From Catalinimonas alkaloidigena (GTDB taxonomy: Bacteria > Bacteroidota > Bacteroidia > Cytophagales > Flexibacteraceae): a DNA stretch of 64,000 bases. The stretch covers positions 496,001 through 560,000 of the forward strand of contig NZ_FNFO01000001.1 in NCBI RefSeq assembly GCF_900100765.1, read 5' to 3'. Below are positions 2,958 to 31,535 of the stretch, piece by piece. The position numbers and the translations under genes are program-made. The first letter of the stretch is position 1. Every line of letters begins with the position of its first letter. The notes beneath the pieces were generated by a model that saw only the letters and a program-made list of their open reading frames with translations, did not search any database and was not told the origin of the DNA.

Positions 2958-4307
2958 ATGTTGCTGCATGCCACCACCCGCCCAAAAACCCGCCGTTTCC
3001 AGTCCGCCGTCCGAAAGAGCTTTTGTTGCCTGGCAACCGGTCTTTGTGCCGTTTGGCTTAGCTTTCCGGTGGCGGCACAGGTCGTGGAAGGTGTGGACTA
3101 TTCTGACCGGGCGGGGGTAGACAATACGTTCGACATGGCCGGGACCGACATTTTTGGCCAGCGGTTTCCGTCCGAGAGTCTGACCATTGCCGATCCGGTC
3201 ACCGGCGTGAAGATTACGGCCCTAACCACCTCGCGGCACAGCAGTTCCAAAATTTACCAGGACCATCCCAACTGGACGGCCAACGGCCGGCACATTGTGT
3301 TCAGCTCGAACCGCAACACGGCTGCCGGCGGGAACGTGACGTTTGCCCGGGACCGGGATCAGCCGCGCCACGTGCGGCAGTTTTACGCCATCTCGATGGA
3401 CGACCACGAAATCGTACAGGTGACGACCGGCAACACCGGGTACCTTCTGCTCGGGCACAAAAAGAACGTGGCCTTTCACCTGCGCGACCATCAGGTGGTC
3501 GAACTGAATCTGGACCGTTTGTTGGCCGACAGCAAGAAACGTCAGGTAAAAGCACCGGCGCAGTACGAACGCGTGGTGGCCTCGCTTCCCGATAGCCTCG
3601 ATCCGGGGGGGATGTGTCTGGACATCACCGACAAACGCATTTTCTTTTCGACGCGGGCAGGAGACGACCGCTCTGCGATCTACAGCGTCGATTTTGACCA
3701 CAACCGTACCGAGAAACTGGTGGAAGTGCCGTTCCGAACGGGACACTTTCAGGCCAACCCGTACGTGTCGGGCGAGATGATGTATTGCTGGGAAACGGGT
3801 GGCGATGCGCCGCAGCGGACGTGGGTGCTGACGGTGGACAAAAACGGCAAGGTGACCAACCGACCGGCTTACAAAGAGAAGGCCAACGAGTGGGTGACCC
3901 ACGAGGTTTTTGCCGGGCCCGACCACATTCTGTTTAACGTCATGGGGCACCTCGACCGGTTGCGGAAAAATCCGACCGGCGTGATGCTCACCAACATTCG
4001 CACCGGGGAAACCAAGCGGCTGGGCCAGGCCGAAGAGCTGGGGGGCTACTGGCACGCGGCCGGCACCAAAGACCTGAAATGGGGCGTGGCCGACACATTT
4101 AACGGCAACATCTACCGACTCAACCTCGAAACCGGCGACGCCACGTTACTGACCACCGGCCACCGGCCCGGCACCCAAAGCCCGTTTTCGAGCCAGGCGC
4201 ACGCGCATCAGTCCATCAGCCCCGATGGCAAATGGGTGCTCTTCAACTCCAGCATGCTGACCGACAGCGACATCATGATGGTGCCATTGCATCCACAGGG
4301 CTTGTAG
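2958..4307 (+). CDS. Oligogalacturonate lyase-like beta-propeller protein (PL22-type)
   Basis: This 449-residue secreted protein starts with a signal peptide (hydrophobic core LATGLCAVWLSFPVAAQ). The rest reads as a TolB/WD-like propeller: HPNWTANGRHIVFSSNRN, then TGHFQANPY, YCWETGGDAPQRTW, NEWVTHEVF and HQSISPDGKWVLFNSS. This pattern of conserved His and Trp/Glu residues is that of polysaccharide lyase family 22 and its relatives, in which clustered histidines hold Mn2+ and beta-elimination releases unsaturated monomers from oligogalacturonides. PL22 enzymes are usually about 390 aa and intracellular, so the signal peptide and extra N-terminal segment suggest periplasmic action or a divergent relative. 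It lies 100 bases behind susD on the same strand, separated by a hairpin. The family is fairly clear; the activity is inferred. Confidence 0.72.
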   Translation: MLLHATTRPKTRRFQSAVRKSFCCLATGLCAVWLSFPVAAQVVEGVDYSDRAGVDNTFDMAGTDIFGQRFPSESLTIADPVTGVKITALTTSRHSSSKIYQDHPNWTANGRHIVFSSNRNTAAGGNVTFARDRDQPRHVRQFYAISMDDHEIVQVTTGNTGYLLLGHKKNVAFHLRDHQVVELNLDRLLADSKKRQVKAPAQYERVVASLPDSLDPGGMCLDITDKRIFFSTRAGDDRSAIYSVDFDHNRTEKLVEVPFRTGHFQANPYVSGEMMYCWETGGDAPQRTWVLTVDKNGKVTNRPAYKEKANEWVTHEVFAGPDHILFNVMGHLDRLRKNPTGVMLTNIRTGETKRLGQAEELGGYWHAAGTKDLKWGVADTFNGNIYRLNLETGDATLLTTGHRPGTQSPFSSQAHAHQSISPDGKWVLFNSSMLTDSDIMMVPLHPQGL

Positions 4308-11655: not shown

Positions 11656-12112
11656 AGCGTACAAAAATTACCTAGCGAAATTAGCTAAAGTGCTAACCAT
11701 CTGAATAAGAAGTTTTCCACACCCTTGGTGATGCGTGGAAGGTTCTCTTGGAGACACAGAAGCGGCGACCGGAGTTCATTTTGCTCGCTTTTTGCGCTTT
11801 TCTTGCTCCGGCGTGCACGGTGCATTGTGAAAATAATTCAATAAAATAATCGGATGGGTCAATGTGTAATGTTTTTACACTTCTTGGCATGTCTAAAATG
11901 AGTCGTAAGAAGGTAGGACGGATTAAGAAAGCGTTGCGAGAGCTAAAAGTGATGTAAGGTTTGCTCCCGGTAGTCTGGAGAAAAAGCATAAAAATGAACT
12001 TCAGCGGCGGCGGGATATGATTTTCGGAGGTTGAATAATGTTGATATTAGGTTAATTAATGTTACGTACGTTTCTTTGTAGTGTTGAATTAGTTAATTAC
12101 CACGTACAGCAC
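11656..12112. other. 457-base intergenic region between dnaE and propeller gene
   Basis: This divergent intergenic region should hold the promoters of both flanking genes. I see no gene. A 22-codon basic plus-strand frame (11889-11957, MSKMSRKKVGRIKKALREL) is too short to support. A small GTGTAATG...TACAC hairpin-like element lies near 11864-11881. Confidence 0.5.
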
Positions 12113-13618
12113 ATGAAAAAGCTATATCTCTTAGCATTATTAGCTCTGCTCTTGGGAGGGGCTGCAGAGCGCGCCGTAGCCCAGCCGGATTATTGTCAGG
12201 ACCTCGACTTTCAGTTCGGCACGACCCAAACCGAACGGCTGCAGGATGCGATCCGCACCCGCGACGGAGGACTTCTGCTGGTTGGCTACCGCTCCGTTGT
12301 CAACATTGGTCGCTTTGACCTGGATTACTGGATTGTGAAACTGGACAAGCACAACAACCTGGAATGGCAGCGGCTGATCGGCAGTATGAACGACGATTAT
12401 GTACAGACTGTCACCGAAGATACCCTTAATGATGGGGGCTTCGTGGTGGCGGGTTATACCACTGCCCTAAAAGCAAGCGGGAACATTTCGATGCCTTCTA
12501 CAGACCCTTACCGCAACGGGATTACGGACATCTGGATGGCCAAAATCTCGTTCGATGGAAAAGAATTGCTGTGGGAACGCCGCCTGGGAGGATACTTTAA
12601 AGAGTCGGTATCGTCCATTACCCTGACCAAAAACGGCACCTACCTGATGAGCGGACGTACCAACTCGTTGCCGGAGACAGGCGATCTGGGGCGCGACAAG
12701 CAATTTGGAGGCTACGACCTTTGGTTGGTAGAGATTAACAAAAATGGGGTGGTAATGCGCGACAAGCGTATCGGAACACCGCACCACGATAAAGTAGAGA
12801 AAATCATTTGCACGACCGATGGCGGTTACCTGCTGGCAGGCCACAGCACCATGATGAGCCTGGAAGAATCGAAGCAGGAAGGGAACCTGATTCAGGACGA
12901 TACCGACTCGGAAGAAAGCCTGCAGGAACGCAACGCGTTCGTCGTCCAACTGGATGGGCAACTGAACGAGCGCTGGCGCTTCGTGAGTGAAAATCCGGCC
13001 AACGAAGCCATCTATTCTGTAACGCCCACGCGTGAGGGCGGCTATCTGGTGGCGGGCTACATTCAGAACAGCGTCTTTATGGTGCAACCCCAAAATGCCG
13101 TAAGTCAGTTTAGCAAAGACATCTGGCTGGCCAAACTGAACGCGGGGGGCGAACTGATCTGGGAGAAGCGCTTCGGGGGCAACAGCGACGAGATTGCCTA
13201 CAACGTAGTAAGTTCCGATGACGGCAACTTCCTGATCGGCGGAATTTCCAACTCTCTGTCAATGCAGGGCGCTAAAGACGGAGCCAACCTGGGAAATTAC
13301 GACTATTGGCTTTTGTCGGTAGACGAGCGTGGTACCAAAAAGTGGGATGCCACCTATGGTGGTACGGGCGAAGATCGACTGATTCGGATCCTGCCGCAAG
13401 ACAACGGCATTTTGCTGGCGGGCTGGTCCAATTCCGTGGCCGATGGAACCAAAATGACCAAAGGCAACGGCGGAAACCACTTCTGGCTTACCAGCCTGAG
13501 CCGCGATGAAGTAGGCACCGTAGAGTGTACTATTTCGCAAAACATACTATCTCAGGACAACACACTAGAGCCGGTAATGACCGAAGAAAATATTGCCCAA
13601 TCGGCAAGCGGACTTTAA
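12113..13618 (+). CDS. Secreted propeller-like repeat protein
   Basis: This 501-residue protein starts at 12113, where the ATG gives a signal peptide (KKLYLLALLALLLGGAAERA); 18 upstream codons from 12059 are probably untranslated. The body carries six or seven imperfect repeats of the form D-[YI]-W-[LM]-x-K-[LI]-x-x-x-G-x-x-x-W-[ED]-[RK]-x-x-G-G, for example DYWIVKLDKHNNLEWQRLIG, DIWLAKLNAGGELIWEKRFG and DYWLLSVDERGTKKWDATYG. Each is followed by GG-[YFN]-L-[LV]-[AV]-G. That period suits a beta-propeller. Proteins like this in Bacteroidota often carry a T9SS tail, but this one ends without it. The binding partner is unknown. Confidence 0.75.
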   Translation: MKKLYLLALLALLLGGAAERAVAQPDYCQDLDFQFGTTQTERLQDAIRTRDGGLLLVGYRSVVNIGRFDLDYWIVKLDKHNNLEWQRLIGSMNDDYVQTVTEDTLNDGGFVVAGYTTALKASGNISMPSTDPYRNGITDIWMAKISFDGKELLWERRLGGYFKESVSSITLTKNGTYLMSGRTNSLPETGDLGRDKQFGGYDLWLVEINKNGVVMRDKRIGTPHHDKVEKIICTTDGGYLLAGHSTMMSLEESKQEGNLIQDDTDSEESLQERNAFVVQLDGQLNERWRFVSENPANEAIYSVTPTREGGYLVAGYIQNSVFMVQPQNAVSQFSKDIWLAKLNAGGELIWEKRFGGNSDEIAYNVVSSDDGNFLIGGISNSLSMQGAKDGANLGNYDYWLLSVDERGTKKWDATYGGTGEDRLIRILPQDNGILLAGWSNSVADGTKMTKGNGGNHFWLTSLSRDEVGTVECTISQNILSQDNTLEPVMTEENIAQSASGL

Positions 13619-13974: not shown

Positions 13975-15102
13975 TCAGAGGCGCGCGTAGTAATTGCGGA
14001 CACGGCTCTGTAACTGGCCGTAAATGGGTTTGCAGAACTCGATGAACATCTGTTGGGGCGGGGGAGGTGTTTGAGGACGCAACCGCGTGAGTTTCAACTG
14101 GTCTTTGCTCAAGGCCCGCTCGTCGCCTTTGTAGTTAGCCCATTGGCTCACCCACACAAATTCGCCGGGATATTTTTCATGCACCAGCACCTGGCGTGTC
14201 CGTCCGTCGAGGATGCGCATGGTGACCAGCCCATTCGATTTAATCTCTTGGCGGTATTCAATAAAGTTCGCCTTAACCGTTCCGTACACATCGGCGTCTT
14301 CGCCGTTGTCTAATTTCACCTGTCCTACTACCACAGAATCGCGCGTAAATTCTTTACTGTCGCTGAAGTTGTTGGTTTGGCCTACCATGAAGTCGTCAAT
14401 GCGAATCTGGATGATTTGATCGGGCCCTTCTTTGATCTGCTCGCGGGGCGAGACAAACTGGACAAATTCGTTTTCGCGGTAATTCATCAGAAACTGATCT
14501 ACCTGATCCTGAAAGAACTCGATGCTCAGCTGGTAATTGACCGAAGGCACCGGAACTTGTTCGACCAGCACCTTGACGGTGGCCAGGTAACGTGCTTCAT
14601 CGATTTTCCGTGTTACATCTTTGTAGCCGGGCGCATACGACTGCGCCATCTGGAAGTGGTCATAGGCTTCGATGTAGCCCTGGCGATGCCCCAGTTTCAT
14701 GGCCGCTTCGCCGGCTGCATACCGCTCCGCCGCTGCGCGATTGCGGTAATCGTTTACTTCCCGGTGATAATCGTTAGGTTGAGGAATAACGGCCAGGGCA
14801 CCGGGGCTGAGGCGTATAGCCTCGGCCAACTGATTCAGTGCCTGGTAGTTCTCCAGCGCTACGCCGTTCTGAAAGCGGTTGCCGGAAGCATGGGCATTGT
14901 CGATTTGCGTAAGGTGGTAGCGCACCGCGGCGGGGTATGCTTTTCGGAGCGTTTCGCGCGATTTCTTATGATTAGGGCTACTTTTTAAGCGATCTGTTGC
15001 CTGGAAAACCGCTTGGTCGTAGTTGCCATGGCGGTAGGAGGCCTTCCCCGAAGTACATGCGTAAAGGGCGAGAAAGGCTAAAATGTAGAGGATCTTTTTC
15101 AT
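13975..15102 (-). CDS. TPR-like helical lipoprotein of unknown function
   Basis: This 375-residue protein starts at the ATG at 15102, which gives a lipoprotein signal (KKILYILAFLALYAC, Cys about residue 16); the reading frame upstream has no signal. The N-terminal half has helical repeats (HGNYDQAVFQATDRLKSSPN, ALNQLAEAIRLSPG, GYIEAYDHFQMAQSYAPGYK) like TPR units. The C-terminal half is a separate beta-rich domain (IIQIRIDDFMVGQ, VYGTVKANFIEYRQE, TMRILDGRTRQVL). It is probably anchored in the outer membrane and faces the periplasm. I do not recognise a named family with certainty. Confidence 0.7.
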   Translation of the reverse strand: MKKILYILAFLALYACTSGKASYRHGNYDQAVFQATDRLKSSPNHKKSRETLRKAYPAAVRYHLTQIDNAHASGNRFQNGVALENYQALNQLAEAIRLSPGALAVIPQPNDYHREVNDYRNRAAAERYAAGEAAMKLGHRQGYIEAYDHFQMAQSYAPGYKDVTRKIDEARYLATVKVLVEQVPVPSVNYQLSIEFFQDQVDQFLMNYRENEFVQFVSPREQIKEGPDQIIQIRIDDFMVGQTNNFSDSKEFTRDSVVVGQVKLDNGEDADVYGTVKANFIEYRQEIKSNGLVTMRILDGRTRQVLVHEKYPGEFVWVSQWANYKGDERALSKDQLKLTRLRPQTPPPPQQMFIEFCKPIYGQLQSRVRNYYARL

Positions 15103-15322
15103 AATATTGACAATCAAACCAATCAATAAAGTTATCGTGGTTTGTCGGCGTTGCAAGGTCCTTTTTTGAGGCAGGCTATCCTTGTAAGATTCCGACATAT
15201 TCCCCGGTAGGACAAAAAGCGGGCCGGTTCTGTAGAGTATCGTGCGGAGTGATTCTCAGATAGAGCTATGCAAGCGTGCTTAATTTCCGTCGGACTTGTC
15301 CATTCTACCTTCTATCCCCATC

Positions 15323-18590: not shown

Positions 18591-18599
18591 ATGGGTATC
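18522..18599 (+). promoter_or_regulatory. 13-bp inverted repeat that includes the giant gene's start codon
   Basis: GATACCCATCGTT (18522-18534) and AACGATGGGTATC (18587-18599) are exact reverse complements, 52 bases apart. The second arm contains the ATG at 18591. In mRNA the two arms could pair and hide the start codon. Confidence 0.55.
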
Positions 18600-21500
18600 A
18601 AATCGATTTGGAGGCGTAATATTTGGCTGCTTTTACTGAGCTTTTTAGCAAGCCCAGTACTGGCAGTTGACTATTACTCTCAAGGTTCAAATGCATTTAG
18701 TGCATTAAGTAACTGGAATACAGCCAGAGACGGCTCGGGCACTTCGCCTCTCGCCGCCGATCTTACCAGTGGCGCTCACCGATTTATTATCGTGGATGGG
18801 CACACAATCGTTGCCAATCAGAACCTGAGCATGTTAGGGCTAACCGTTGGGGAAGGCCTAGGGACAGCTACATTCACGATAGGTAACAGTACTACTGCGT
18901 TGACCATTGCCCTGGGAGGCAATTTGGTGGTAGGTACGGGCAGTGTGGTGGAGGTGGGCGCTTTCGATGCGACTCATACCCTGACGCTGACAGGAAACTT
19001 GCAAAACAGTGGTACCGTCGACCTGTATCGTAGTGTGACGCAGGTGGCAAATATCACCGTGCAGGGCACTTCGTCCATCAGCGGAAATACGCCGCAGTTC
19101 AACAACATCACGTTTCAGTCCGGGACAGTGACGGCCAACACCAACCTCGATGTCGAAGGCACCGTGGTGATTGAAGCAGGAGCCACCTTTGCGGATGGCG
19201 GCTATACGCACACGGTCAAAAACTGGACGGAAAACGGCTCGGGGCAGCGCACTGGTGTGGGCACCATCGTGATGGATGCATCTGTGAGCATCATCAGCGG
19301 TACCTCTACTTTTCACAACCTTACGTTCAACGGCGTCGTTGCCGGGCAGTTTGCAGGCACGACGACCGTTACGGGCAACTTTCTGGCTACGAACAATGCG
19401 ACGGTCTCCAGCGGTGTCTCAACTTATTTTCAAGGCAACTTTACGGTAGACAGCGGCAGTAAATTTCAGGGAACCACCAACGGTATAGCTTATTTCGACG
19501 CAGCGGTCGCTCAAACGCTTACGTTCAACGGCACCGTTACTTTCGACCAGGTGCGCTTTCAGAATGGTGGCACCGCTAATCCGAAGACCGTCGTCGGTAA
19601 CCTGATTGCCAACGACCTTACCTACGTTTACAGCGGAGCTACCGTGACCGGAAACGGGGCGCACCAACTGGAAGAGATGCGTATCGAAGGTGACTGTAAC
19701 CTGACCGGTACGCTTACGCTCGTCGGCAACCAGCTCTGGGATGGCATCGACAGCGACTTTACGCTGTTAACCGAACTCATCGTGGCGGGAAACGTGAACA
19801 TCCGGGCCGGAAACACGTTGCGGGTACGCGAGAATGTGACGATAGAAAGCAATTACCTGGTTATTAACGATGGGGCCTTCCTGATTCAGGAAACAGCCGG
19901 GCGTACCCTAACGCTTCGGACCGGTACTAGCCTCTATGCGCGTGGTACAGACAACTTTCCGACGGGATTTACCACGTTTACACCGGAGTACGATTCCTGG
20001 GTTCGTTATGACGCCAACATGCCTCAAACCGTACGTGGTGGCTTAACGTACGCCAACCTGTATACGCGTTACGACACAAAAACGGTAGACGGCGCTATCG
20101 ACGTTAACGGCAGAATGTACCTCTACACCGGGGTCACGCTGAACTTGGGAAGCTACGCGCATACGTTCGAAGGAAATATTGAAAATGCGGGAAGTAATAA
20201 CTCGATTGTCAGCACGGGTACGGTGACGCTCGATGCTACGGACGCCAATCAGTACATCGGCGATCATGGTAGCGGAACGTACACTTTCCAGAACCTGGCT
20301 TTCACGTTGGCTAGCCCCACGGCCATGCGTACAAAGACTTTGTACGGGACCAACTATACTGTCAATGGTAATTTCTCAGCTACCAGCGGAGGAGACGCCA
20401 GCAGTTACCTGCGGCTTGACCTCAACAGTGTAACGCTGACCAACGACGGTGGAGACCAGTTTGCCTTGGGCGATAAGGTCGAAGTTCTTACGGATGGCAC
20501 CAGCACGTTTACAAATTCAGTTGGCTCTTTTTCTACTACATCGCTCCATGTCAACAGCACAGTTTGGTTTAACGGTACGAATCAGACCCTGCCGGGCATT
20601 ACGTTCGGGAACCTGTACCTGTCGGGGAACGGAAATAAAACCGCTGCCGGCAATCTGGATATCAACGGCGATCTGATCCGGCAAGGAGGAAATGCCATCT
20701 TCGAAAATGCTACGTACAACGTAAATGTAGCGGGCGATATGAGCTTGGGTGCAGGCTACATGAATGCCACCGGTAGCTCCAGCACGTTTACCTTCGACGG
20801 GACCGATCAGGCCATCAGCTCGGGTACTTTCTACAACATCACCTTTTCTACTGGCGGCAACAAGACAGTTTCCGGCACGACGAATGTGCTGGGCAACATG
20901 TCCGTAAACGCAGGTTCTGTCTATTTCAACAATAGCAACATCGTGCTGGAAGGGCACCTGTTGACCCTGAGCGGCAACATGTACCAGACAACTGGAACCA
21001 CTACGCTGACGGGCGGAAACTATCAGTTTATCGGGATGGGCAGCTCCAGTATTCTGGGAGATTTGACCATTGATAAATCGGCTGGACAGGTAGCGGCCGC
21101 CACCAACATCACCATTGAGCGTGATTTCATCATGACGGCCAACCGAGCCGTTTTCAGTTTGAATAGCTTCTTTCTGCGGGTCGGACGGCACTTTGTCTAC
21201 AACTCAGGGTGTACATTCAACGCGAACTCGGGAACGCTTCACCTGAACGGCTCTGTATTGCAGAACATCAACGTCAACACCTCAGGTCTGGTGCTGAACC
21301 ACCTGCGGTTCTCAGGTACAGGCGAAAAGCGACTTAACAACAATGATGTCGACATCAACGGCAACGTGATCATCGACGGAGCCCTGTTCAATGCACAAAA
21401 CCGGAACCTGACCGTAGCCGGAAACTGGACCAATACGGGAACATTCCAATCTACTGCGCGCGTCACCTTCGACAGGGCCGGAAACCAAACCATCAGCGCC

Positions 21501-24500
21501 TCTACCTTCCACGACCTGTACATCGACGGAAGCGGGACGAAAACCCTGACGGGAAGCATTTCGATGGATGGCCGTATGGAAATCGATAACGGGACTCTTG
21601 ACGTAAGTGCTTCGAATTACAACATCATTGTCGAAGAGCATTGGTACAATACCGGCGCGGGCTCGTTCACGCCGCGTCAGGGAACGGTAACCTTCGTCGG
21701 CAACAGCTCTCGTCTGTATACCGGCGGCACCGGGGCGGGCAAGACGTTCAACCGAGTGGTGGTCAACCTGAGCAGCGGCCAGTACATGGACCTGTACGGA
21801 GATCTGCTTACCGCTGGCGACCTGCGCGTTTCGCGCGGTAATTTCCGTACTTACGGATACGACATGTACATCGGGGGAAGCCTGATCAACGACGATACTT
21901 TCCAGGCCAACAGCGCTGCCCATGACCTCTTTCTGAATGCTACCAGTGGCGCACGCACCTTCAAACCGGGATCTGGTTCGTATCGCGACATCACCATCAA
22001 TGCATCGGGGGCTTCTTACAAGCTGACCGGCAACCTGGATCTGTACGGTGGTTATAACCTGGTGCTGGATGCCGGGACGTTTGCCTTGGGGGGCTATACC
22101 GTTACGATGCCGGGCACCGGAGGAAACGTAACCGTAAACGCCGGTACTTTTAGCATCGATTCAGCTTCAACCTTGCAAGTGGGCAATGGCGGTACGGTTA
22201 CCAATGCCGGAGGAACATTCCGAATTGTGGGCGTTGATGGCGACTACGCGACCATGAAAGCCTACAGCGGGACCTATACGTTCGTGCAGACCTCCGGGAC
22301 ATTTCATGCGCGCTATTTCAACATTCAAAACACGCGAGGCAACGGGATTAACCTGCAGGGGGGAAGCCTGGATGCCACCAACTGTTTTGCCGATGGGATC
22401 TTTACCGGAGGTACCAACAATGCCTACGCTACCTTAACGGGCATCGACCTGGGAAGCGGGGTTTTTGCTGGAGGAACTTCGTTCGGTGCAGGTCCTACCT
22501 ACAACATCACCCGGCTTTCGGGTACTGGAGTCATCACTTTCCAGAACGCCGACGGGATCAAAGCCGGAGCGGCTTACGAGCAAGATGGCGGTAACCTGAT
22601 TGCCTGGGAATTTCCGGATGGCTATTTCTGGGATAACGACAATGGCGACAATAACTGGAACAACGCCCTGAACTGGAGCGGCAACACGTTGCCCGATCTT
22701 ACCTCCAACGTCTATCTGGAACACACGTATGTAACCGGTGCTTATACCGTAAACGTCAACGCCAATGCCGAGGCCAACCGCCTGGTGCTGGATGCCCAGA
22801 GTGGAAGTGCCATCGCGCTCACGTTGAATGGCGCAAACATGACGGTCGATCGCAGTGTGCTCATCAATACGAACACGACGGTTACGCAGACACAAGCTAC
22901 CGATACCATTCGCGTGGGGGGGAGCTGGACCAACGCAGGTACCTTCAACGAAGGCAATGCGGTGGTTGTGTTTGAAGGGCATTCCGGTTCTGGAACCATC
23001 GCCACCAAGGGCACGTCCGATCCGTTCTATCACCTCATCATCAACGCTCCGAGTGCTACTTACACCCTGGAAAGCATTCTGGATATTGACGGGAACATGA
23101 CGCTGACCGCCGGAACGCTCGACGTCGGCGGCGCCAACTACGCCATTTATGCAGCGGGCAACTGGACGGCACAAGGGGGAACGCTGAACGGCCGCGCCGG
23201 AACAGTAACGCTCAACAAAGCGGGCACCAGCTCACAAACCGTTACCGGCGGCAGCTTTAACCATCTTTCGTTCACCAACCCGGCCGGAACAGGTACTGCT
23301 ACCAAAGTGATTGCAAGCGGGCTTTCTGTACTGGGCAACCTGACCATCGATACCAACACAGGCGTGCAGGGAGGAAGTAACCTGATTCGTGTGGGAGGCC
23401 ACTGGCGTAACAACGTGGGAGCCAGCGGATTTTCTGCCGGTTCCAGTGCTGTGGTATTCGACGGAAGCAACCAAACCATCGGCAACGGAGGGCAGCCTAC
23501 CACCTTCAACAATGTGTATTTCCAGGGAAGTGGTAATAAGTCGCTTGCGCTGAACATGAACGTAGGGAGTAACTTCCAGATCACGTCGGTTACTGTAACC
23601 GTGGAAGACGGAGTAACCGTCAACGGTACCGGCGCCAACAACAACTTGCAAATGGCGAGTGGATTGTTGCGAATCATGGGGCTGAACGGGTTTCCTCAAA
23701 ACTTCGAGAATCCATTCCTGAGCGGAGGTCGTGTGGAATACCGCGGGAACATCAACCAGAATGTTTACCCTACAGCGTACTACGATCTCTACCTGTTACG
23801 CAACAATGCTGGAAACGTACAAACCAAAACGCTATCAGGTCCGATCACGGTCGCTAACAACCTGGTGGTAAACGATGCAGAAACTACCCTGAATGCCAAC
23901 GGGCAGACCATTACGCTGGGTAGCGGCTTGTACCTGGCTACGGGTGGGCCGCAGGTGACCTGGAGTGGGGGAACGCTCGTTCACAACGGTGGGAGCTGGA
24001 ACCTCGATTCCGACATCACGTCGTTCCATCACCTGGTGTTGAGTGGCAGCGGTACAAAGCGCCTTTACAATAACCTGACGATCTCGGGCAACGTTTCGGT
24101 GCAGAACGACATTACGCTGCGCATGGACGACTACACCATGACGGCCAGCGGCAGCGGGCAGACGTTCTCGATGTTGAGCAGCAGCTATCTGACCGTCAGC
24201 ATCCCGACGTCTACAGGGGTTGCTTTCCCTACCAACTTTGCCACGTACGCTTTAGACCCGACCAGCCGTGTAACGCTAAATGGTGCTACGAATCAGACCA
24301 TTTATACCGTACCTAATTACGGAGAGCTGTACCTGAGCAACTCCGGCAACGCAACGCTGGGCGGTAACTTAGACGTGGAAGGAGACATGGTCATGACGAC
24401 CGACAACACCACGTTGGTGGATGCAGGGTACAACATGAACCTGGCAGGTAGCCTGAACGATTTCCGGAACTATCCGGCTCCGGGAGGCACGGTTACGTTC

Positions 24501-27500
24501 GATGGTGCCGATCAGGCGATCCGCAGTACCATTAGTCTTTCGGTCGATCCGTTGAACTTTAACCAGTTGATTTTTGCCGGGACCGGCACCAAAACATTTG
24601 GAAATGGCGAAGATGTGATCGACATCAGCGGGAACATGACCGTACAGTCTGGGATTACCGTGACTTCATCGTTGCCCATCTTCTTCTCAGGAGCGCAGTG
24701 GCAGAACCTGGGGACTTTTACCCACTCCGGCAGCACGGTTACGTTCGACGCCGCCACCGCGCAGGTAATCAATCCTGGGGTGAACCACACGTTCAATGCC
24801 ATGACGTTCCAGAACGGGAGCAAAACCATCGTGTTGAACGGCTTGGATGTGAATGGCGATTTCACCATTGCATCCGGGGCACACGTCAACATGAGCGCGC
24901 TAACCCACCGCGTTGCCTCTGGACTGGTAACCGTAGCCGGAAGCTGGACTACGTCAACCACCAACTTCTTCTTCGACGGTGGTAACCAAACGTTGCCTGC
25001 CTTTACGGCTCTGGACGTGACCATCCAGAACGGAGGTACCAAGACCATGAGCGGTGCTTGGTCGGCCGACGACCTGACCATCGCGTCGGGGGCGCGTCTG
25101 GACGTGAGCACTAGCAACTACGGCGTTACGCTGACCGGTTACTTCGATAACCAGGGAACCTTCACCAGCCGTAACGGGACTGTGGCATTTGAGAGCGCGA
25201 ACACGTCGGCGAAAGTCATCAACATTGGGGGCTCGAACTTCTACAACGTGACGTTCAACCAAAGCCAGACCAACAGCCGCACGTATACGCTGCAAACCAA
25301 TACCAACATTTACGAGAACCTGATTATTGGGAACGGCGCTACGCTGAAGCTGAACGGAAAACAATTGAACCTAGGCGACAACACCGCCGGCGAAACCTAT
25401 ACGATACAAAGCGGCGGAACACTGGACGTAGACGCCGGGGCAAAGCTTCGGTTCGACACGCGTGGCGGCAATGACCTGATGACCGTAGCGGGTACCCTGC
25501 GTGTGGTAGGGACCAGTGGCAACTCAGCCGAAGTAGAACGCATTTACGGAAGCAACTACTACGGTATTGTGGTGAACTCAGGTGCCACCATTCATGCCCG
25601 TTACTACCATTTCCATCACCTGGACGACAACGGCCTTCGGGTACAAAACGGCGCCACGATCGATCCTACCAATAACTTCTCGGACGGGGCCTGGTCCGAC
25701 ATGCGTACGGGCGGCAGCGGTGCACGTTACTACCTGCAGGTAGAAGCCTCGTCGGCCGGTTTGCCCGACATCTCGAACGTAACCTTCAACTACGGCGCGA
25801 CGCCGTCCATCGGACGTGACTACAACGTACGCCGGACCAATGCTGCAACGGGGAATATCACCTTTGCCGGAACCATTTCGGGGATTTTGGCCGGGGCTAC
25901 GTACGAAGATGACGGCAGCACTAAAATTATCTGGCCAAGTGTTTCGACAGTTACCTGGACGGGTAGTCAGAGCACAGACTGGCATAACCCCAACAACTGG
26001 TCACCGGCCACGGTGCCTACCTCAACGATCGATGCCTTCATTCCGCTGGGAAGCCCCAACAACCCGCTGATCAGCACGGGCGATGCGGTATGCCGTAACA
26101 TGACCATCACCAATGGGGTTGTGGAGCTTACTGCCGGGCGTCAGTTAAATGTAGTGGGAGATATGGTGATCGGTACAGGAGCGAGCAGTGCCATTCTGGC
26201 TGTGCTCGCCCCTAGCAGCGGAATTACGGTAGGCGGTAACTGGACACGCGCGGCCAATGCCTCGTTTATACACGGCAACGGTACCGTAACGTTCACTGGA
26301 GCCATCAACAACTTTACCCTTACGCCTCGCACGTCGGCCTTCTACAACCTGGTCTTCAACGGCAGTGGTACCTTTACTCTGAGCGGCAGCCAGATCAATG
26401 TAGAGGGCAACATGACGCTGTTCGGTGGCACGATCGATCAGGCAACCAACAACTACGTAATCAGCCTGTCGGGTAATTATACGAACAGCGGGGGAACCTT
26501 TCTTACGGCCACTACTGGTACGATGACCTTTGTCGGAACCAACCAGGTCGTAACCAACGGGACGTTCAACCGGGTAAGCCTGGCGGGCAACGGCGTGAAG
26601 ACTACTTCTGGTACGCTGACGGTAAGTAACACCTTCGACATTGCGGCTGGCGATACGCTCCAGGCGGGTGGCCCGGTGAATTTGAGCGGCAACGCTACGA
26701 TTGCCGCCAACGGTGCTATTCTGGATGGCGGTCAGACGATCTCTTTCAACGGGGCAGCCTGGACTAACGCAGGCTACTACGAAGGAACCGGAACGGTCAA
26801 CTTCGATCGAGCGGGCAACCAGACCATCGCTGGCGGGATGTTCAACAACCTGACGTTGAGCGGAACTGGTCAGGTCAGCCTCCTGTCGAACATGGCAGTA
26901 ACCGGCAATGTCACGGTCTACAATTCCATCAATACCCTACGTCTGGAAACGTATCTGATTCAGAACACAGACGGATCGGGTACATTCTACCTGGATGCCA
27001 ACGAAAGCATGTATGTGCTGGGGAACGATAACTTCCCGGCTGGTTTCTCGACGTACGACCTGCACGACAACAGCTGGGTGCGTTACGAGGGAACCATCGC
27101 GCAGCAGATTGCGCCCGTGCGCTACGGTGAGCTGGTGCTGAACAATGCCACGACCAAAACGCTGAAAGGAGACATCATCATCGACAGCCGTCTGTATGTC
27201 AACGATGCGACGCTTGATGCCAGCACGAACAGCTACAAGATCACGATCTACAACCACTGGGTAAACAACGGCACAGGTACGTTTGTCGCGCGCGCTGGTG
27301 AAGTGGTTTTTGCTGGAGGTCTGTCCAGCCAGTATTTCTACACCAATACGTCGGGTAGCAACGATTTCTACCGCCTCACGGTCAATAAGACCGCTGGCAC
27401 GCAAGTGTATCCGGCCGACAACGATACCATCGTCGTGAAGCAGGATTTGCAGGTGCAGAGTGGTATCATGAACGCCAACAACCGCGTGATCAACGTGCAG

Positions 27501-30500
27501 GGAGACCTGAACGTCACGTCGGGCGATGTAGCCACGAACGGAACGTACTACTTCAACAAGGCCTCGGGTAGCGCAACGCTGCGGACCAACAACGCGGTCT
27601 TCAACACCATGGAGTTTGCCGGGGGGGCTACGTACACCGTACAGGATGCATTGACCCTGAATGGCAGCTACACATTGGGTGCGGGCGTGACTTTTGACGG
27701 AAATGGCAAAGCGGTGACCTTGGGCGATAACATCTATGATCAGATCGTGATCAACGGTGATTTCCGGGTTGGTGCCGGGGGAACGCTGTATCTGGGGAAC
27801 GACGTCACCTTGACGGTAAACAGTGGTGGTACTTTCCGTGCCGTAGGTACAGGGAGCCAACCCGTTACGGTAACGTCCCGTAATACTACGAACTACAACT
27901 TCACGGTATTCGGTACGATTCATGCCCAGTACTATACGTTCGAAAAGATGGCCTCGAACGGCATTTACGTAGCCGCTGGTGCTACCATCGATCCGACGAA
28001 CAACTTCAGCAACGGAACCTTTACAAACGGCCAGAATGGCGGAACCCTACTGCGGGTTCACAACAATCAGATCCTGACAGGCAGCAACCGCATCGAAAAC
28101 GTGGTGTTCCCGTCCAATCCGGGTGGTGGCGCCTACAACGTCTCGAAAGGTGTAAACAGCGGGCAGATCGAGTTTTACAGTGCGGCAGGGGCTTTTGCGG
28201 GTGCCGGCTACGAAAACGACCCGTATGATCTGATCGAATGGACGGGTATTACAACCATTACCTGGACAGGAGCCACGAACAGTGAGTGGGCCTTGGCCAG
28301 CAACTGGTCGACCAACACCATTCCTACGTCGGGCGACGACGTCATCATCACCTCGGGGCCGGTCAATCAGCCTGTCATCTCGGGAACACCGGCACTGGCC
28401 CGGACCATCGATCTGCAAAGTGGTGCGTTCCTACGGGTCAACAGTGCTTCGAGCGACGCCGACCTGACGGTCGCCAGCGACCTGACATTTGCCGGTAACC
28501 TGCAGCTGATGTCGGCTGACGACAGCATCGTGGTGCGAGGAAACTTCACGGAAAGCGGTGGCTCGTTCAACAACGGGGGAGGAATAGTAACGGTTGCGCC
28601 TGTAAGCGGATCGGCTACGATCACGACCGGCTCGCCGTTCTACAAACTGACCATCGCCGGAAGCGGCACCGTGTTGGCAGGCAACGCCCTGACCATCTCC
28701 AACGACCTGACGATCAAATCGGGTGCGATCTTCGACGTCTCGGCGCAGAATTACCAGCTTTCGATTGCGGGCAACTACACCAACCAAGGTTCGTTTGTAT
28801 CGCGCAGCGGAACGCTTCTGATGAATGCGACCGGGGGGACTCGTACAATCCGGAGCGGTGGCTCTTCTTTATATCGACTGACAGTTATGTCGTCGGCCAC
28901 CTACCAGCTGCTCGATGCGGTTACCGTGAGCAATCGCCTGGAGCACAACACCGGAACCTTCCGCCTCAACGGCAATACGCTGTCGGTTTCCGGCCAGTTG
29001 AATGTGCATAGCGGAACCTTCGCCGTTGGTGCACTCGGAACGCTTCGGATGGGAAATAATGCCGCGATCAACGTCAATTCTGGCGCAACGTTCAGCATGG
29101 TGGGGAACAGCGCTAGCCAACTGGCAACGGTCACCAGCACAGGCACCACTCGGTACGCGTTCAACATCAACTCGGGTGCTACACTGGCGGCGCGCTACTA
29201 CAGCGTGAACTACATCAACAGCACCGGGTTGCGTGTGTACAGTGGTGCCACCATCGACGGCACAAACAACCTTTCGTACGGTACGTTCTCGAACGGCGCT
29301 ACGAGTGGGCGTTATCTGTGGCTGGAAAACAACTTTGCTGACTTTGTCGCAACCGAGGTTACCTTTAACGCAGGGGCTTCTTACAACGTGCGCCGGGTAT
29401 CAGGCACGGGGGTGATTACCTTCTTCGATGCTGCCGGTGTGTTGTCAGGCTATCTTTACGAGCAGGACGATAACTATCCGAACTCCGGACGCATTCGCTG
29501 GACTTCTACTGTCGCGACGGTAGTCTGGAATGGCCTGGGTGGCGACAATAACTGGCACAACCCCGCCAACTGGGACATCGGTACGGTACCGACCATTACG
29601 CACAACGTGGTGATTCCTTCATCGCACCTGGTGAATGTGTATCAGCAGAATGCGTTTGCGAACAACGTACAGATTGCCAGTGCAACGACACTGACGTTCC
29701 AGAGCGGATGGGGCTTGTCGGTAGAAGAGTCGATCGAAAACGCCGGTACCATCACCATCAACGCGGGGTCCAACTCGATCCTGTCGATGGGTGAAACCTG
29801 GACAAATACGGGTACTTTCAACTACACCAACGCGGGTACGATCCAACTGACGGCTGCCACAGGCGACTTCCTGATTACCAACGGGGCGAATCCGCTGTAC
29901 AATATGACCATCAACAGCGCAGCCCCAGGAACGGCTACCTATACGTTGGTGGACTCGTTGGTACTGGCTGGTAACCTGACGGTGACGGATGGAACGCTGG
30001 CGACGGACGGTAACAAGATGCATGTGCGGGGCAACTGGACCATTGCCACCAACGGTGAGTTTGCTCACGGCGACGGCGTGGTAGAGTTCGATGGCCCCGG
30101 TGCTCAGGCAATTACGTTCAGTGGTTTGGGAAGCTTCTACGACGTAGAATTCGATAGCACAGGTGCCAAAACGCTGGGCTCGAATCTGACGGTATTGCGC
30201 GACCTGACCATTCATCCGACAAGTTCCCTCAATGCTTCTTCGTACACCCTGTCGGTGGCCGGAAACTGGGACAACACCGGAGCCTTTACACCTGGCACGA
30301 GCACGGTTGTGTTGAATGGCGCTACGCCACAAGCGGTAAGTCGCTTCGGTGGGGAGTCGTTCAACAACCTGCAGATTAACAATACCGCCGGCACAGGACC
30401 GCAAATCCTCCTGGGAAGCGCCATCGCGGTCAGCGGGACGATGACGTTCACCGACGGCATAGTGCAGTCTTCGGCTGCCAATATGGTGAGCTTTGGTGCT

Positions 30501-31535
30501 GCCGCTACAGTTGCTTCGGCCACCGAGGGTAGCTACATCAGCGGCCCGGCACGGAAGGCCGGCAGCAGCGACTTTACGTTCCCGGTTGGAAACGATACAC
30601 TGTTTGCACCCATTGGCATCTCAGGTCTGACGGGCAGCAGCACGTTCACGGCCGAATACTTCGACGATCCATACGATCCGAATGGCCCACGTGAGACAAC
30701 CCTGAAGGCGACTAGCCAGACCGAGTACTGGGATCTGACCCGTAACAGTGGATCGGCCGCCGCCTATGTCACCCTTCACTGGCGTGACGGCGCGCACAGC
30801 ACCATCGAAAGCATGCAGGCGTTGGTAGTTGCACACCACAGCGGTACGCAGTGGGAAGACTTCGGCGGAACTACTTCGGGTTCTGTAGCCCAGGGATCAG
30901 TCACGTCTACGTCGCGCCTGACGTCGTTCAGCCCGATCACATTCGGCTCTACCAACTGGTACCTGAACCCGCTGCCGGTAGAACTGGTCGCCTTCGGTGC
31001 CGCCTGGGAAAAAGGCACGCACAATGCTGTAGTAAGTTGGAAAACCGTTTCCGAAACGAACAATGCAGGCTTTGAACTGGAGCGCTCGTTGAACGGCGAC
31101 GATTGGACGGTCATCACCTTCGTGGAAGGACACGGTACGACCAATCTGCCACAACAGTACGGCCATGTAGATGTCGACGTGCAAGGGGCACCGGTGTATT
31201 ACCGACTGCGCCAGATTGACCTGGACGGAGCCGTCCACCTGTCGGATGTGGTGGTGCTGGAAGCGCCGACTCCCACAGGGCTGTGGCTTGTGCAGACTTA
31301 CCCGAATCCTTTCCGCGACGCTTTCCAAGTGAAAGTCCAGACGGAAGAGCGCGGTACGCTTAAAATGCAATTGCTGAACCTGTACGGTACGGTGCTTCAC
31401 GTGTGGGAAGCGCCTGTCAAAGCGGGTCAGAATCAGGTCGAAGTGGATCAGTTGGCACACTTGCCGGCCGGTATTTACTTGCTGACGGTAGAGCAGAACG
31501 GTCGCAAGCAGACCCTGCGCATGATCAAGCAATAA
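18591..31535 (+). CDS. Giant T9SS-secreted beta-strand-repeat surface protein (4314 aa)
   Basis: I start at the ATG at 18591, which gives a signal peptide (RRNIWLLLLSFLASPVLA); a GTG at 18516 would add 25 residues ahead of it. Nearly all of the protein is beta-helix-like repeats of about 75-100 residues around F-[YNH]-x-[LV]-x-[FIL]-x-G-x-G-x-K-T-[LV]-x-G, then D-[IV]-x-G-[ND]-[LMV]-x-[IV]-x-x-G. I count about 34. They fall into five blocks separated by a conserved boundary (HARYY-like segment, ATIDPTNNFS, then W-x-x-x-x-N-W). From about residue 4110 there is a non-repeat region (PLPVELVAFGAAW) and, from about 4235, a type A T9SS sorting tail (TYPNPFRDAF through GIYLLTVEQNGRKQTL). T9SS would release or anchor it at the surface. 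It may be an adhesin, matrix or gliding-related fibre; no enzyme domain is visible. Asn, Gly and Thr dominate and Cys is rare. Confidence 0.93.
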   Translation: MGIKSIWRRNIWLLLLSFLASPVLAVDYYSQGSNAFSALSNWNTARDGSGTSPLAADLTSGAHRFIIVDGHTIVANQNLSMLGLTVGEGLGTATFTIGNSTTALTIALGGNLVVGTGSVVEVGAFDATHTLTLTGNLQNSGTVDLYRSVTQVANITVQGTSSISGNTPQFNNITFQSGTVTANTNLDVEGTVVIEAGATFADGGYTHTVKNWTENGSGQRTGVGTIVMDASVSIISGTSTFHNLTFNGVVAGQFAGTTTVTGNFLATNNATVSSGVSTYFQGNFTVDSGSKFQGTTNGIAYFDAAVAQTLTFNGTVTFDQVRFQNGGTANPKTVVGNLIANDLTYVYSGATVTGNGAHQLEEMRIEGDCNLTGTLTLVGNQLWDGIDSDFTLLTELIVAGNVNIRAGNTLRVRENVTIESNYLVINDGAFLIQETAGRTLTLRTGTSLYARGTDNFPTGFTTFTPEYDSWVRYDANMPQTVRGGLTYANLYTRYDTKTVDGAIDVNGRMYLYTGVTLNLGSYAHTFEGNIENAGSNNSIVSTGTVTLDATDANQYIGDHGSGTYTFQNLAFTLASPTAMRTKTLYGTNYTVNGNFSATSGGDASSYLRLDLNSVTLTNDGGDQFALGDKVEVLTDGTSTFTNSVGSFSTTSLHVNSTVWFNGTNQTLPGITFGNLYLSGNGNKTAAGNLDINGDLIRQGGNAIFENATYNVNVAGDMSLGAGYMNATGSSSTFTFDGTDQAISSGTFYNITFSTGGNKTVSGTTNVLGNMSVNAGSVYFNNSNIVLEGHLLTLSGNMYQTTGTTTLTGGNYQFIGMGSSSILGDLTIDKSAGQVAAATNITIERDFIMTANRAVFSLNSFFLRVGRHFVYNSGCTFNANSGTLHLNGSVLQNINVNTSGLVLNHLRFSGTGEKRLNNNDVDINGNVIIDGALFNAQNRNLTVAGNWTNTGTFQSTARVTFDRAGNQTISASTFHDLYIDGSGTKTLTGSISMDGRMEIDNGTLDVSASNYNIIVEEHWYNTGAGSFTPRQGTVTFVGNSSRLYTGGTGAGKTFNRVVVNLSSGQYMDLYGDLLTAGDLRVSRGNFRTYGYDMYIGGSLINDDTFQANSAAHDLFLNATSGARTFKPGSGSYRDITINASGASYKLTGNLDLYGGYNLVLDAGTFALGGYTVTMPGTGGNVTVNAGTFSIDSASTLQVGNGGTVTNAGGTFRIVGVDGDYATMKAYSGTYTFVQTSGTFHARYFNIQNTRGNGINLQGGSLDATNCFADGIFTGGTNNAYATLTGIDLGSGVFAGGTSFGAGPTYNITRLSGTGVITFQNADGIKAGAAYEQDGGNLIAWEFPDGYFWDNDNGDNNWNNALNWSGNTLPDLTSNVYLEHTYVTGAYTVNVNANAEANRLVLDAQSGSAIALTLNGANMTVDRSVLINTNTTVTQTQATDTIRVGGSWTNAGTFNEGNAVVVFEGHSGSGTIATKGTSDPFYHLIINAPSATYTLESILDIDGNMTLTAGTLDVGGANYAIYAAGNWTAQGGTLNGRAGTVTLNKAGTSSQTVTGGSFNHLSFTNPAGTGTATKVIASGLSVLGNLTIDTNTGVQGGSNLIRVGGHWRNNVGASGFSAGSSAVVFDGSNQTIGNGGQPTTFNNVYFQGSGNKSLALNMNVGSNFQITSVTVTVEDGVTVNGTGANNNLQMASGLLRIMGLNGFPQNFENPFLSGGRVEYRGNINQNVYPTAYYDLYLLRNNAGNVQTKTLSGPITVANNLVVNDAETTLNANGQTITLGSGLYLATGGPQVTWSGGTLVHNGGSWNLDSDITSFHHLVLSGSGTKRLYNNLTISGNVSVQNDITLRMDDYTMTASGSGQTFSMLSSSYLTVSIPTSTGVAFPTNFATYALDPTSRVTLNGATNQTIYTVPNYGELYLSNSGNATLGGNLDVEGDMVMTTDNTTLVDAGYNMNLAGSLNDFRNYPAPGGTVTFDGADQAIRSTISLSVDPLNFNQLIFAGTGTKTFGNGEDVIDISGNMTVQSGITVTSSLPIFFSGAQWQNLGTFTHSGSTVTFDAATAQVINPGVNHTFNAMTFQNGSKTIVLNGLDVNGDFTIASGAHVNMSALTHRVASGLVTVAGSWTTSTTNFFFDGGNQTLPAFTALDVTIQNGGTKTMSGAWSADDLTIASGARLDVSTSNYGVTLTGYFDNQGTFTSRNGTVAFESANTSAKVINIGGSNFYNVTFNQSQTNSRTYTLQTNTNIYENLIIGNGATLKLNGKQLNLGDNTAGETYTIQSGGTLDVDAGAKLRFDTRGGNDLMTVAGTLRVVGTSGNSAEVERIYGSNYYGIVVNSGATIHARYYHFHHLDDNGLRVQNGATIDPTNNFSDGAWSDMRTGGSGARYYLQVEASSAGLPDISNVTFNYGATPSIGRDYNVRRTNAATGNITFAGTISGILAGATYEDDGSTKIIWPSVSTVTWTGSQSTDWHNPNNWSPATVPTSTIDAFIPLGSPNNPLISTGDAVCRNMTITNGVVELTAGRQLNVVGDMVIGTGASSAILAVLAPSSGITVGGNWTRAANASFIHGNGTVTFTGAINNFTLTPRTSAFYNLVFNGSGTFTLSGSQINVEGNMTLFGGTIDQATNNYVISLSGNYTNSGGTFLTATTGTMTFVGTNQVVTNGTFNRVSLAGNGVKTTSGTLTVSNTFDIAAGDTLQAGGPVNLSGNATIAANGAILDGGQTISFNGAAWTNAGYYEGTGTVNFDRAGNQTIAGGMFNNLTLSGTGQVSLLSNMAVTGNVTVYNSINTLRLETYLIQNTDGSGTFYLDANESMYVLGNDNFPAGFSTYDLHDNSWVRYEGTIAQQIAPVRYGELVLNNATTKTLKGDIIIDSRLYVNDATLDASTNSYKITIYNHWVNNGTGTFVARAGEVVFAGGLSSQYFYTNTSGSNDFYRLTVNKTAGTQVYPADNDTIVVKQDLQVQSGIMNANNRVINVQGDLNVTSGDVATNGTYYFNKASGSATLRTNNAVFNTMEFAGGATYTVQDALTLNGSYTLGAGVTFDGNGKAVTLGDNIYDQIVINGDFRVGAGGTLYLGNDVTLTVNSGGTFRAVGTGSQPVTVTSRNTTNYNFTVFGTIHAQYYTFEKMASNGIYVAAGATIDPTNNFSNGTFTNGQNGGTLLRVHNNQILTGSNRIENVVFPSNPGGGAYNVSKGVNSGQIEFYSAAGAFAGAGYENDPYDLIEWTGITTITWTGATNSEWALASNWSTNTIPTSGDDVIITSGPVNQPVISGTPALARTIDLQSGAFLRVNSASSDADLTVASDLTFAGNLQLMSADDSIVVRGNFTESGGSFNNGGGIVTVAPVSGSATITTGSPFYKLTIAGSGTVLAGNALTISNDLTIKSGAIFDVSAQNYQLSIAGNYTNQGSFVSRSGTLLMNATGGTRTIRSGGSSLYRLTVMSSATYQLLDAVTVSNRLEHNTGTFRLNGNTLSVSGQLNVHSGTFAVGALGTLRMGNNAAINVNSGATFSMVGNSASQLATVTSTGTTRYAFNINSGATLAARYYSVNYINSTGLRVYSGATIDGTNNLSYGTFSNGATSGRYLWLENNFADFVATEVTFNAGASYNVRRVSGTGVITFFDAAGVLSGYLYEQDDNYPNSGRIRWTSTVATVVWNGLGGDNNWHNPANWDIGTVPTITHNVVIPSSHLVNVYQQNAFANNVQIASATTLTFQSGWGLSVEESIENAGTITINAGSNSILSMGETWTNTGTFNYTNAGTIQLTAATGDFLITNGANPLYNMTINSAAPGTATYTLVDSLVLAGNLTVTDGTLATDGNKMHVRGNWTIATNGEFAHGDGVVEFDGPGAQAITFSGLGSFYDVEFDSTGAKTLGSNLTVLRDLTIHPTSSLNASSYTLSVAGNWDNTGAFTPGTSTVVLNGATPQAVSRFGGESFNNLQINNTAGTGPQILLGSAIAVSGTMTFTDGIVQSSAANMVSFGAAATVASATEGSYISGPARKAGSSDFTFPVGNDTLFAPIGISGLTGSSTFTAEYFDDPYDPNGPRETTLKATSQTEYWDLTRNSGSAAAYVTLHWRDGAHSTIESMQALVVAHHSGTQWEDFGGTTSGSVAQGSVTSTSRLTSFSPITFGSTNWYLNPLPVELVAFGAAWEKGTHNAVVSWKTVSETNNAGFELERSLNGDDWTVITFVEGHGTTNLPQQYGHVDVDVQGAPVYYRLRQIDLDGAVHLSDVVVLEAPTPTGLWLVQTYPNPFRDAFQVKVQTEERGTLKMQLLNLYGTVLHVWEAPVKAGQNQVEVDQLAHLPAGIYLLTVEQNGRKQTLRMIKQ
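22302..29640 (+). repeat. Four-copy block-boundary signature within the giant gene
   Basis: The same protein signature begins at 22302 (FHARYFNIQNTRGNGI), 25590 (IHARYYHFHHLDDNGL), 27918 (IHAQYYTFEKMASNGI) and 29184 (LAARYYSVNYINSTGL). Each is followed by a [LD]-[DG]-[AP]-T-N segment and, 340-370 bases on, by an N-W-containing loop (about 22655, 25958, 28262, 29525). The copies are similar at protein level but diverged in DNA, so they are old duplications rather than recent tandem copies. Confidence 0.8.

What the first reader, a model, noticed from the sequence alone, without database searches (positions are those of the whole stretch)
18591..31535. A 4314-residue T9SS protein built of five repeat blocks that mostly shorten along the chain
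Reading the protein by eye I find about 34 repeat units in five blocks of 13, 10, 6, 2 and 3 units. Block lengths fall from about 1330 to 1100, 770, 420 and 465 residues. Each of the first four blocks ends with the same boundary (HARYY-like segment, ATIDPTNNFS-like segment, then an N-W loop). The repeats have no exact copies in the DNA. This suggests old segment duplications with loss of repeats, or a ruler-like graded design of a surface fibre. The T9SS tail shows it is sent outside the cell.
Basis: partly seen in the sequence, partly recalled or inferred. Interest (0 to 1): 0.7.

Follow-up and report, generated by a model that had tools for sequence, protein, structure and literature searches.

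The report
Giant surface rod with frozen lengths
This gene makes a 4,314-residue exported protein built of five beta-helix rods, and relatives in distant bacteria keep three of those rods the same length within a few percent although more than half of the residues have changed, so length looks like something the cell needs.

Summary
The ORF at 18591-31535 encodes a signal peptide, five repeat blocks, short C-terminal domains and a type A T9SS tail. AlphaFold models of blocks 3 and 4 (pLDDT 90 and 92) are parallel beta-helices, and their best structural matches are right-handed beta-helix proteins. Each block opens with a W...NW cap; blocks 1-4 close with a shared terminator.

In 41 homologues from Bacteroidota and Chlorobiota, at 26-48% identity, block 2 is 1092-1165 residues, block 3 762-844 and block 4 422-446. 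None of about 2,960 indels there exceeds 20 residues. Both ends vary by hundreds of residues, and relatives of other giant proteins vary twofold or more. The 148-residue boundary was found only in this family. The blocks are paralogues: first, "NFP" and last units match each other.

The graded part is only partly right. Block 5 is not shorter than block 4, and some relatives add block-1-type blocks at the N-terminus. Loss of repeats was not shown. I read it as a jointed, fixed-length surface rod, probably an adhesin stalk; that function is inferred, not tested.

The parts
18591..31535 (+). whole gene, 4314 aa; five beta-helix blocks, short C-terminal domains and a T9SS type A tail
18591..18665 (+). 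probable signal peptide (aa 1-25, ...LLLLSFLASPVLA)
   Evidence: read from the sequence; no signal-peptide predictor was run
18666..22625 (+). block 1 (aa 26-1345): N-cap with NW near aa 41, 14 units, end unit, terminator
22626..25955 (+). block 2 (aa 1346-2455): W..NW cap, 11 units, terminator; 1092-1165 aa between boundaries in 41 homologues
25956..28262 (+). block 3 (aa 2456-3224): W..NW cap, 7 units, terminator; 762-844 aa in 41 homologues; modelled as a continuous beta-helix
28263..29525 (+). block 4 (aa 3225-3645): W..NW cap, 3 units, terminator; 422-446 aa in 41 homologues; modelled as a beta-helix
29526..30485 (+). block 5 (aa 3646-3965): W..NW cap and 3 units, no end unit or terminator
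22305..22730 (+). boundary module 1 (aa 1239-1380): terminator coils, then W..NW cap of block 2
25593..26057 (+). boundary module 2 (aa 2335-2489)
27921..28364 (+). boundary module 3 (aa 3111-3258)
29190..29627 (+). boundary module 4 (aa 3534-3679)
19848..20105 (+). NFP-type unit, block 1 unit 5
   Evidence: score 156 with block 3 unit 4
20427..20663 (+). NFP-type unit, block 1 unit 7
23586..23852 (+). NFP-type unit, block 2 unit 4
24084..24377 (+). NFP-type unit, block 2 unit 6
26919..27182 (+). NFP-type unit, block 3 unit 4 (GxxNFPxGFxxY loop conserved in homologues)
22050..22283 (+). end unit of block 1
   Evidence: end units score 77-102 with each other and under 40 with all others
25311..25562 (+). 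end unit of block 2
27660..27890 (+). end unit of block 3
28929..29150 (+). end unit of block 4
30486..31298 (+). non-repeat region (aa 3966-4236) between block 5 and the sorting tail, of the kind common in T9SS cargo; 13-40% identical to homologues in the order
   Evidence: the domain type is from my own knowledge
31299..31532 (+). T9SS type A C-terminal sorting domain (aa 4237-4314)

Best explanation
It is a giant cell-surface rod. The signal peptide takes it to the periplasm, and the type A tail has it exported by the T9SS and most likely fixed to the cell surface (inferred from the tail type). Outside, the chain folds into five right-handed parallel beta-helices in series (modelled for blocks 3 and 4, inferred for 1, 2 and 5). 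Each begins with a W...NW cap, and the first four close with a terminator, so each block is a separate stiff rod joined to the next by a short link. At about 20-22 residues and 0.48 nm per coil (general knowledge of beta-helices), the rods would be roughly 29, 25, 17, 9 and 7 nm long, about 80-90 nm end to end. The C-terminal tail is the anchor, so the short rods lie near the membrane and the longest rod at the tip. Selection keeps the number of coils in rods 2-4 fixed while the sequence drifts; some lineages lengthen the tip with extra copies of block-1 type. The most likely job is a jointed stalk or adhesin that holds its distal part at a set distance and makes contact with a surface, matrix or neighbour. 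Architecture, homology and length conservation are shown; the fold is predicted; anchoring, rod lengths and function are inferred.
For: Tail; fate of type A tails reviewed in PMC10202324. Fold: AlphaFold pLDDT 92.3 (aa 3101-3768) and 90.2 (aa 2395-3251); the listed structural neighbours are mostly beta-helix adhesins, lyases and tailspikes (EspC Z 17.6 over 343 aa, pertactin Z 17.2 over 240 aa at 3.3 A, EtpA Z 16.0 over 685 aa but at 12.2 A). Fixed lengths: in 41 homologues block 2 has mean 1120 (sd 17), block 3 792 (18) and block 4 436 (5.5), while the part before block 2 runs 154-1397 and the part after block 4 151-1437, including some genes cut by contig ends. None of 2,963 indels in blocks 2-4 exceeds 20 residues. 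Residue identity to the window protein is 26-48%. An unbiased check with the boundary alone over 345 genomes found it in 8, with 3-4 copies, always in this gene. Controls: a giant protein with 16 units of this repeat type but no boundary has relatives at 30-43% identity with open frames of 1398-4646 aa; a giant cargo protein with other repeats has relatives of 1714-5670 aa. Extra distal blocks match block 1 best at their end and several at their start too.
Against: No experiment, ligand or partner is known, and no gene neighbour is conserved across the family. The link angles are unknown: the models have pTM 0.70-0.74 and no error matrix was available, so the blocks might fold back on each other. 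The controls are looser than true one-to-one orthologues, and some of their open frames may be cut by contig ends. Diverged repeats recombine little, which by itself slows changes in repeat number. The family is patchy (16 of 390 genomes in the order), so it is not essential to the group.
Confidence: 0.6

Rival explanations
1. An ordinary long beta-helix adhesin in which length has no function. The repeats are too diverged to recombine and coil-sized indels would break the stacked core, so the lengths stay constant by structural inertia.
For: No near-identical DNA repeats remain to drive slippage, and indels are confined to short loop-size events. Units of the protein share only about 14-31% identity with the first unit aligned.
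Against: Relatives of a giant protein with the same unit type but no boundary vary more than twofold in length at similar identity. In this same family the N-terminal side gains whole blocks and block 1 varies.
Confidence: 0.25
2. A polysaccharide-active protein: the beta-helices bind or cleave a glycan along their length, like beta-helix lyases and tailspikes, and length sets the number of sites.
For: The listed structural neighbours include PL6 alginate lyases, RbmB and phage tailspikes. The NFP-type unit has a conserved loop (GxxNFPxGFxxY) and recurs five times.
Against: No enzyme family matches in Pfam or NCBIfam. The strongly conserved residues are W, F, Y, N, Q and K spread through the rods, with no obvious catalytic cluster. 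A fold match does not show function.
Confidence: 0.1
3. A structural layer or sheath component: many copies pack side by side on the cell, and the conserved rod lengths set the lattice spacing.
For: T9SS is known to secrete S-layer proteins (PMC10202324), and fixed lengths with repeated boundary modules would suit packing. RsaA is among the weaker fold matches.
Against: The gene is patchy and usually single, the N-terminal length varies between relatives, and there is no conserved partner.
Confidence: 0.05

Closest known systems
Two-partner secretion exoproteins (TpsA: filamentous haemagglutinin, HMW1, EtpA)
   Same: Long right-handed parallel beta-helices made of imperfect repeats on the cell surface; EtpA is among the best structural matches over 685 residues, at 12.2 A rmsd, and is described as an elongated helix about 29 nm long (PMC11100705).
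   Different: No Pfam match to a secretion domain of that pathway; T9SS tail instead. Several capped rods in series with fixed lengths rather than one continuous helix.
T9SS type A cargo proteins, including giant repeat proteins of Bacteroidota (for example RemA, or the 3605-aa G002 protein with the same unit type)
   Same: Signal peptide, long extracellular region; type A sorting tail shown for the window protein; shared unit type with the G002 protein.
   Different: The boundary module and the 11/7/3-unit block core are found only in this family; relatives of the other giants vary widely in length.
SprB gliding adhesin
   Same: Very large surface protein exported by T9SS.
   Different: SprB carries a type B tail and needs SprF (PMC10202324); here the tail is type A.
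G8 domain and amnionless (beta-helix proteins with a W...NW-like start)
   Same: The W...NW cap gives weak matches: G8 19.6 bits and amnionless 19.2 bits.
   Different: Both are below Pfam's curated cut-offs (22.9 and 30.4).

Membership tests
T9SS type A cargo | C-terminal sorting domain PF18962 / TIGR04183 | tested here: met
   30.8 bits against a cut-off of 27; 34.5 against 23
T9SS type A cargo | N-terminal signal peptide | tested here: inconclusive
   a hydrophobic stretch ending in SPVLA is visible in the sequence; no predictor was run
Right-handed parallel beta-helix fold | stacked parallel-strand coils in the predicted structure, matching solved right-handed beta-helices | tested here: met
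   blocks 3 and 4 by AlphaFold, pLDDT 90-92; Z 16-17 to known beta-helices; blocks 1, 2 and 5 by homology of units only
Two-partner secretion exoprotein (TpsA) | N-terminal secretion domain of that pathway | tested here: not met
   no such Pfam family matched even at E 10
SprB-type gliding adhesin | type B tail (PF13585 / TIGR04131) | tested here: not met
   only the type A tail matched
SprB-type gliding adhesin | needed for gliding | not testable with these tools
   needs a mutant
G8 domain (PF10162) | score above Pfam's cut-off | tested here: not met
   19.6 bits against 22.9 for the window; 4 of 26 sequences match at E 0.01
Beta-helix polysaccharide lyase or hydrolase | enzyme family profile and catalytic residues | tested here: inconclusive
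   no enzyme profile matched; catalytic sites were not modelled

The most novel reading that the evidence does not exclude
The protein is a true molecular ruler: a jointed surface arm whose base segments (3, 7 and 11 units, growing outward from the membrane) are held at exact lengths by selection across Bacteroidota and Chlorobiota, while the tip is lengthened by adding copies of the outermost block. The spacing of the four conserved joints, rather than the surface chemistry of the rods, would be the conserved function.
Probability: 0.3. Interest if true: 0.78.

Novelty: new variant of a known kind. Interest (0 to 1): 0.58.

Why it matters
From general knowledge, repeat proteins on bacterial surfaces often change repeat number quickly. 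Here the unit count of a 4,300-residue repeat protein is nearly constant over very large evolutionary distances while residues turn over, which makes length itself a testable trait. The family is undescribed as far as I could find: no Pfam domain covers the rods and none of six paper searches found it. It has a diagnostic boundary sequence, occurs in cultured species (Reichenbachiella versicolor, Shiella aurantiaca, Breznakibacter xylanolyticus), and offers a natural series with none to three extra distal blocks for asking whether adhesin reach is under selection.

Tried and rejected
A solved-structure sequence search with the block 4 profile gave nothing. Foldseek alone gave no match at E 0.001, probably because the model is long and repetitive; the VIA-align second look was informative. 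Gene neighbours as a clue to function were rejected: neighbours are shared only within small clades. A pair of giant beta-helix proteins in one genus (G004 4640 aa, G007 3451 aa) was dropped as a length control because the shorter one ends at a contig edge. Whole-protein searches are limited to 3000 residues, so a 900-residue piece spanning block 3 was used. The first conserved-pattern scan failed because the alignment was too diverse. A first run of the unit profile comparison failed on file format. The own genome was not available as a file. Paper searches found no description of the family.
Full report
The observation. The ORF at 18591-31535 is open over 4314 codons and ends in a type A T9SS sorting domain. 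No Pfam family covers the rest. The residue lag spectrum of the protein peaks near 20-21, 40, 79-83 and 159, among other lags, as expected for beta-helix coils of about 20 residues grouped in fours. An iterated unit profile finds 39 full-length matches of 17-75 bits. Five shuffled proteins reach 21 bits once and otherwise stay below 9, and the reversed protein reaches 15 bits. Assigned to blocks, the units number 14, 11, 7, 3 and 3. The DNA holds no tandem repeats and only weak short direct repeats.

The boundary. A 146-position profile built from boundaries 1-4 hits the window protein at four places, aa 1239-1380, 2335-2489, 3111-3258 and 3534-3679 (that profile includes these sequences). A separate alignment of the boundaries with four homologues, searched over the whole genome, finds only these four and one doubtful partial hit. 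The second half of the module is the W...NW cap of the next block, weakly like the G8 domain and amnionless.

Relatives. A 900-residue piece around block 3 finds homologues in 16 of 390 genomes of the order, the window's own included. A profile of block 3 finds seven more genomes with strong full-length matches in other classes of the phylum and two in other orders of the class. A scan of named genomes gives 40 loci, from Cyclobacteriaceae, Fulvivirga, Reichenbachiella, Shiella, Breznakibacter, Salinivirgaceae, Flavobacteriales, Chloroherpetonaceae and others. Many are metagenome bins, so some taxon names may be wrong. The tree mixes taxa in places, which suggests transfer or differential loss.

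Length. Aligned to the window protein, 14 homologues give cap-to-cap block lengths of 1258-1415 (876 in one gene cut by a contig end), 1101-1154, 768-824 and 434-463. With the boundary profile on all 41 usable genes, the window's included, boundary-to-boundary lengths are 1092-1165 (sd 17), 762-844 (sd 18) and 422-446 (sd 5.5). The stretch before boundary 1 runs 154-1397 and the stretch after boundary 4 151-1437, partly from contig ends and partly real. I required distances inside wide windows (1000-1250, 700-900, 380-520). Every complete gene of the family met them. Of the genes that did not qualify, those cut by contig ends or frame breaks show the same spacing where two boundaries remain, and two distant short proteins (L147, L149) lack the arrangement. 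Pairwise indels against the window in blocks 2-4 total 2,963, and none exceeds 20 residues. In block 1, larger deletions occur near its start. Unit counts by profile have medians 13/11/7/3/3 across the 41. Lower counts in distant members reflect weaker detection, since the lengths do not drop.

An independent check. Searching 345 genomes of the phylum with the boundary profile alone, which does not depend on block length, finds it in 8 genomes, the window's included. Each has three or four strong copies, all in one gene. At this sensitivity the boundary does not occur in other arrangements.

Controls. A 3605-residue giant of a family member (G002) holds 16 units of the same type and no boundary. 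Its relatives at 30-43% identity have open frames of 1398-4646 residues and align over about half the query. Relatives of another giant T9SS protein of this genome range from 1714 to 5670 residues. These are not strict orthologues and some may be cut by contig ends, so the contrast is suggestive and not a calibrated test.

Origin of the blocks. Position-specific unit profiles from 41 homologues were compared all against all. End units of blocks 1-4 match each other (77-102) and nothing else (under 40). Five NFP-type units in blocks 1, 1, 2, 2 and 3 match each other (76-156) and little else. First units of blocks 2-5 match each other, and unit 12 of block 1 matches unit 5 of block 3 (125). The blocks thus share an order: start units, NFP units where present, penultimate units, end unit. 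They are paralogues that differ in the number of middle units. Whether the middle was lost or gained cannot be rooted with these data. In seven relatives, extra N-terminal blocks resemble block 1 most strongly at their end, and several also at their start.

Fold. AlphaFold models of aa 3101-3768 (pLDDT 92.3, pTM 0.74) and aa 2395-3251 (pLDDT 90.2, pTM 0.70) are rich in short strands in the pattern of a parallel beta-helix. VIA-align places them with right-handed helices: EspC, RbmB, pertactin, HMW1, tailspikes, EtpA. In the block 4 model the aligned range runs to about residue 540, that is through the terminator and to just before the next W...NW cap. Each block is therefore best seen as one capped rod.

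Surroundings. Upstream lie a TPR protein, a DUF6272 protein and DNA polymerase III alpha; downstream lie histidine-kinase genes. No neighbour is shared across the family. This gives no hint of a partner.

Interpretation. T9SS type A tails lead to release or anchoring on A-LPS (PMC10202324), so I infer that the C-terminus is at the cell and the N-terminus points outward. Then the fixed segments form the base, growing outward from 3 to 7 to 11 units, and new blocks are added towards the tip. A jointed stalk or adhesin with a set reach explains this best. Structural inertia, a glycan-active protein and a surface layer remain possible. Only experiments can decide.

Limits. Fewer than 2,000 genomes were searched with the genome tool and those are unnamed. 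The 41 genes include some cut by contig ends. The rods of blocks 1, 2 and 5 were not modelled. Rod lengths in nanometres rest on the usual 0.48 nm per coil and were not measured on the models.

Noticed in passing
L110 and L121 (Chlorobiota bacterium M_MaxBin.088): Two different copies of the five-block gene in one metagenome bin; possibly two genomes binned together, or a rare duplication.
   Followed up: no
G394 (L106-L107) and L136 (Chloroherpetonaceae): The fourth boundary lacks its W...NW cap and the protein ends about 440 residues later, so these members seem to have four blocks only.
   Followed up: partly
L070/L071 (G082), L074/L075 (G209), L076/L077 (G120), L078/L079 (G143): In this genus a subtilisin-like giant protein (about 2,790 aa in G082) follows the gene by 120-270 bases, and an outer-membrane beta-barrel-like protein precedes it.
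   Followed up: no
L177 (G002:C5), minus strand, 3605-aa gene: A giant protein with 16 units of the same repeat type but no boundary modules; possible relative of the ancestral single rod.
   Followed up: partly
L149 and L147: Short proteins (1704 and 1383 aa; a Bacteroidia bin and a candidate division WOR-3 bin) with one or two boundary-like modules; possible outgroup for rooting the block duplications.
   Followed up: no
whole genome (G000): 141 matches to the T9SS type A tail in one 7.1 Mb genome, including a 6590-aa open frame on contig 7.
   Followed up: no
12059-13618 (+) and 13975-15198 (-): Two ORFs of 519 and 407 aa upstream of the gene without any Pfam match.
   Followed up: no
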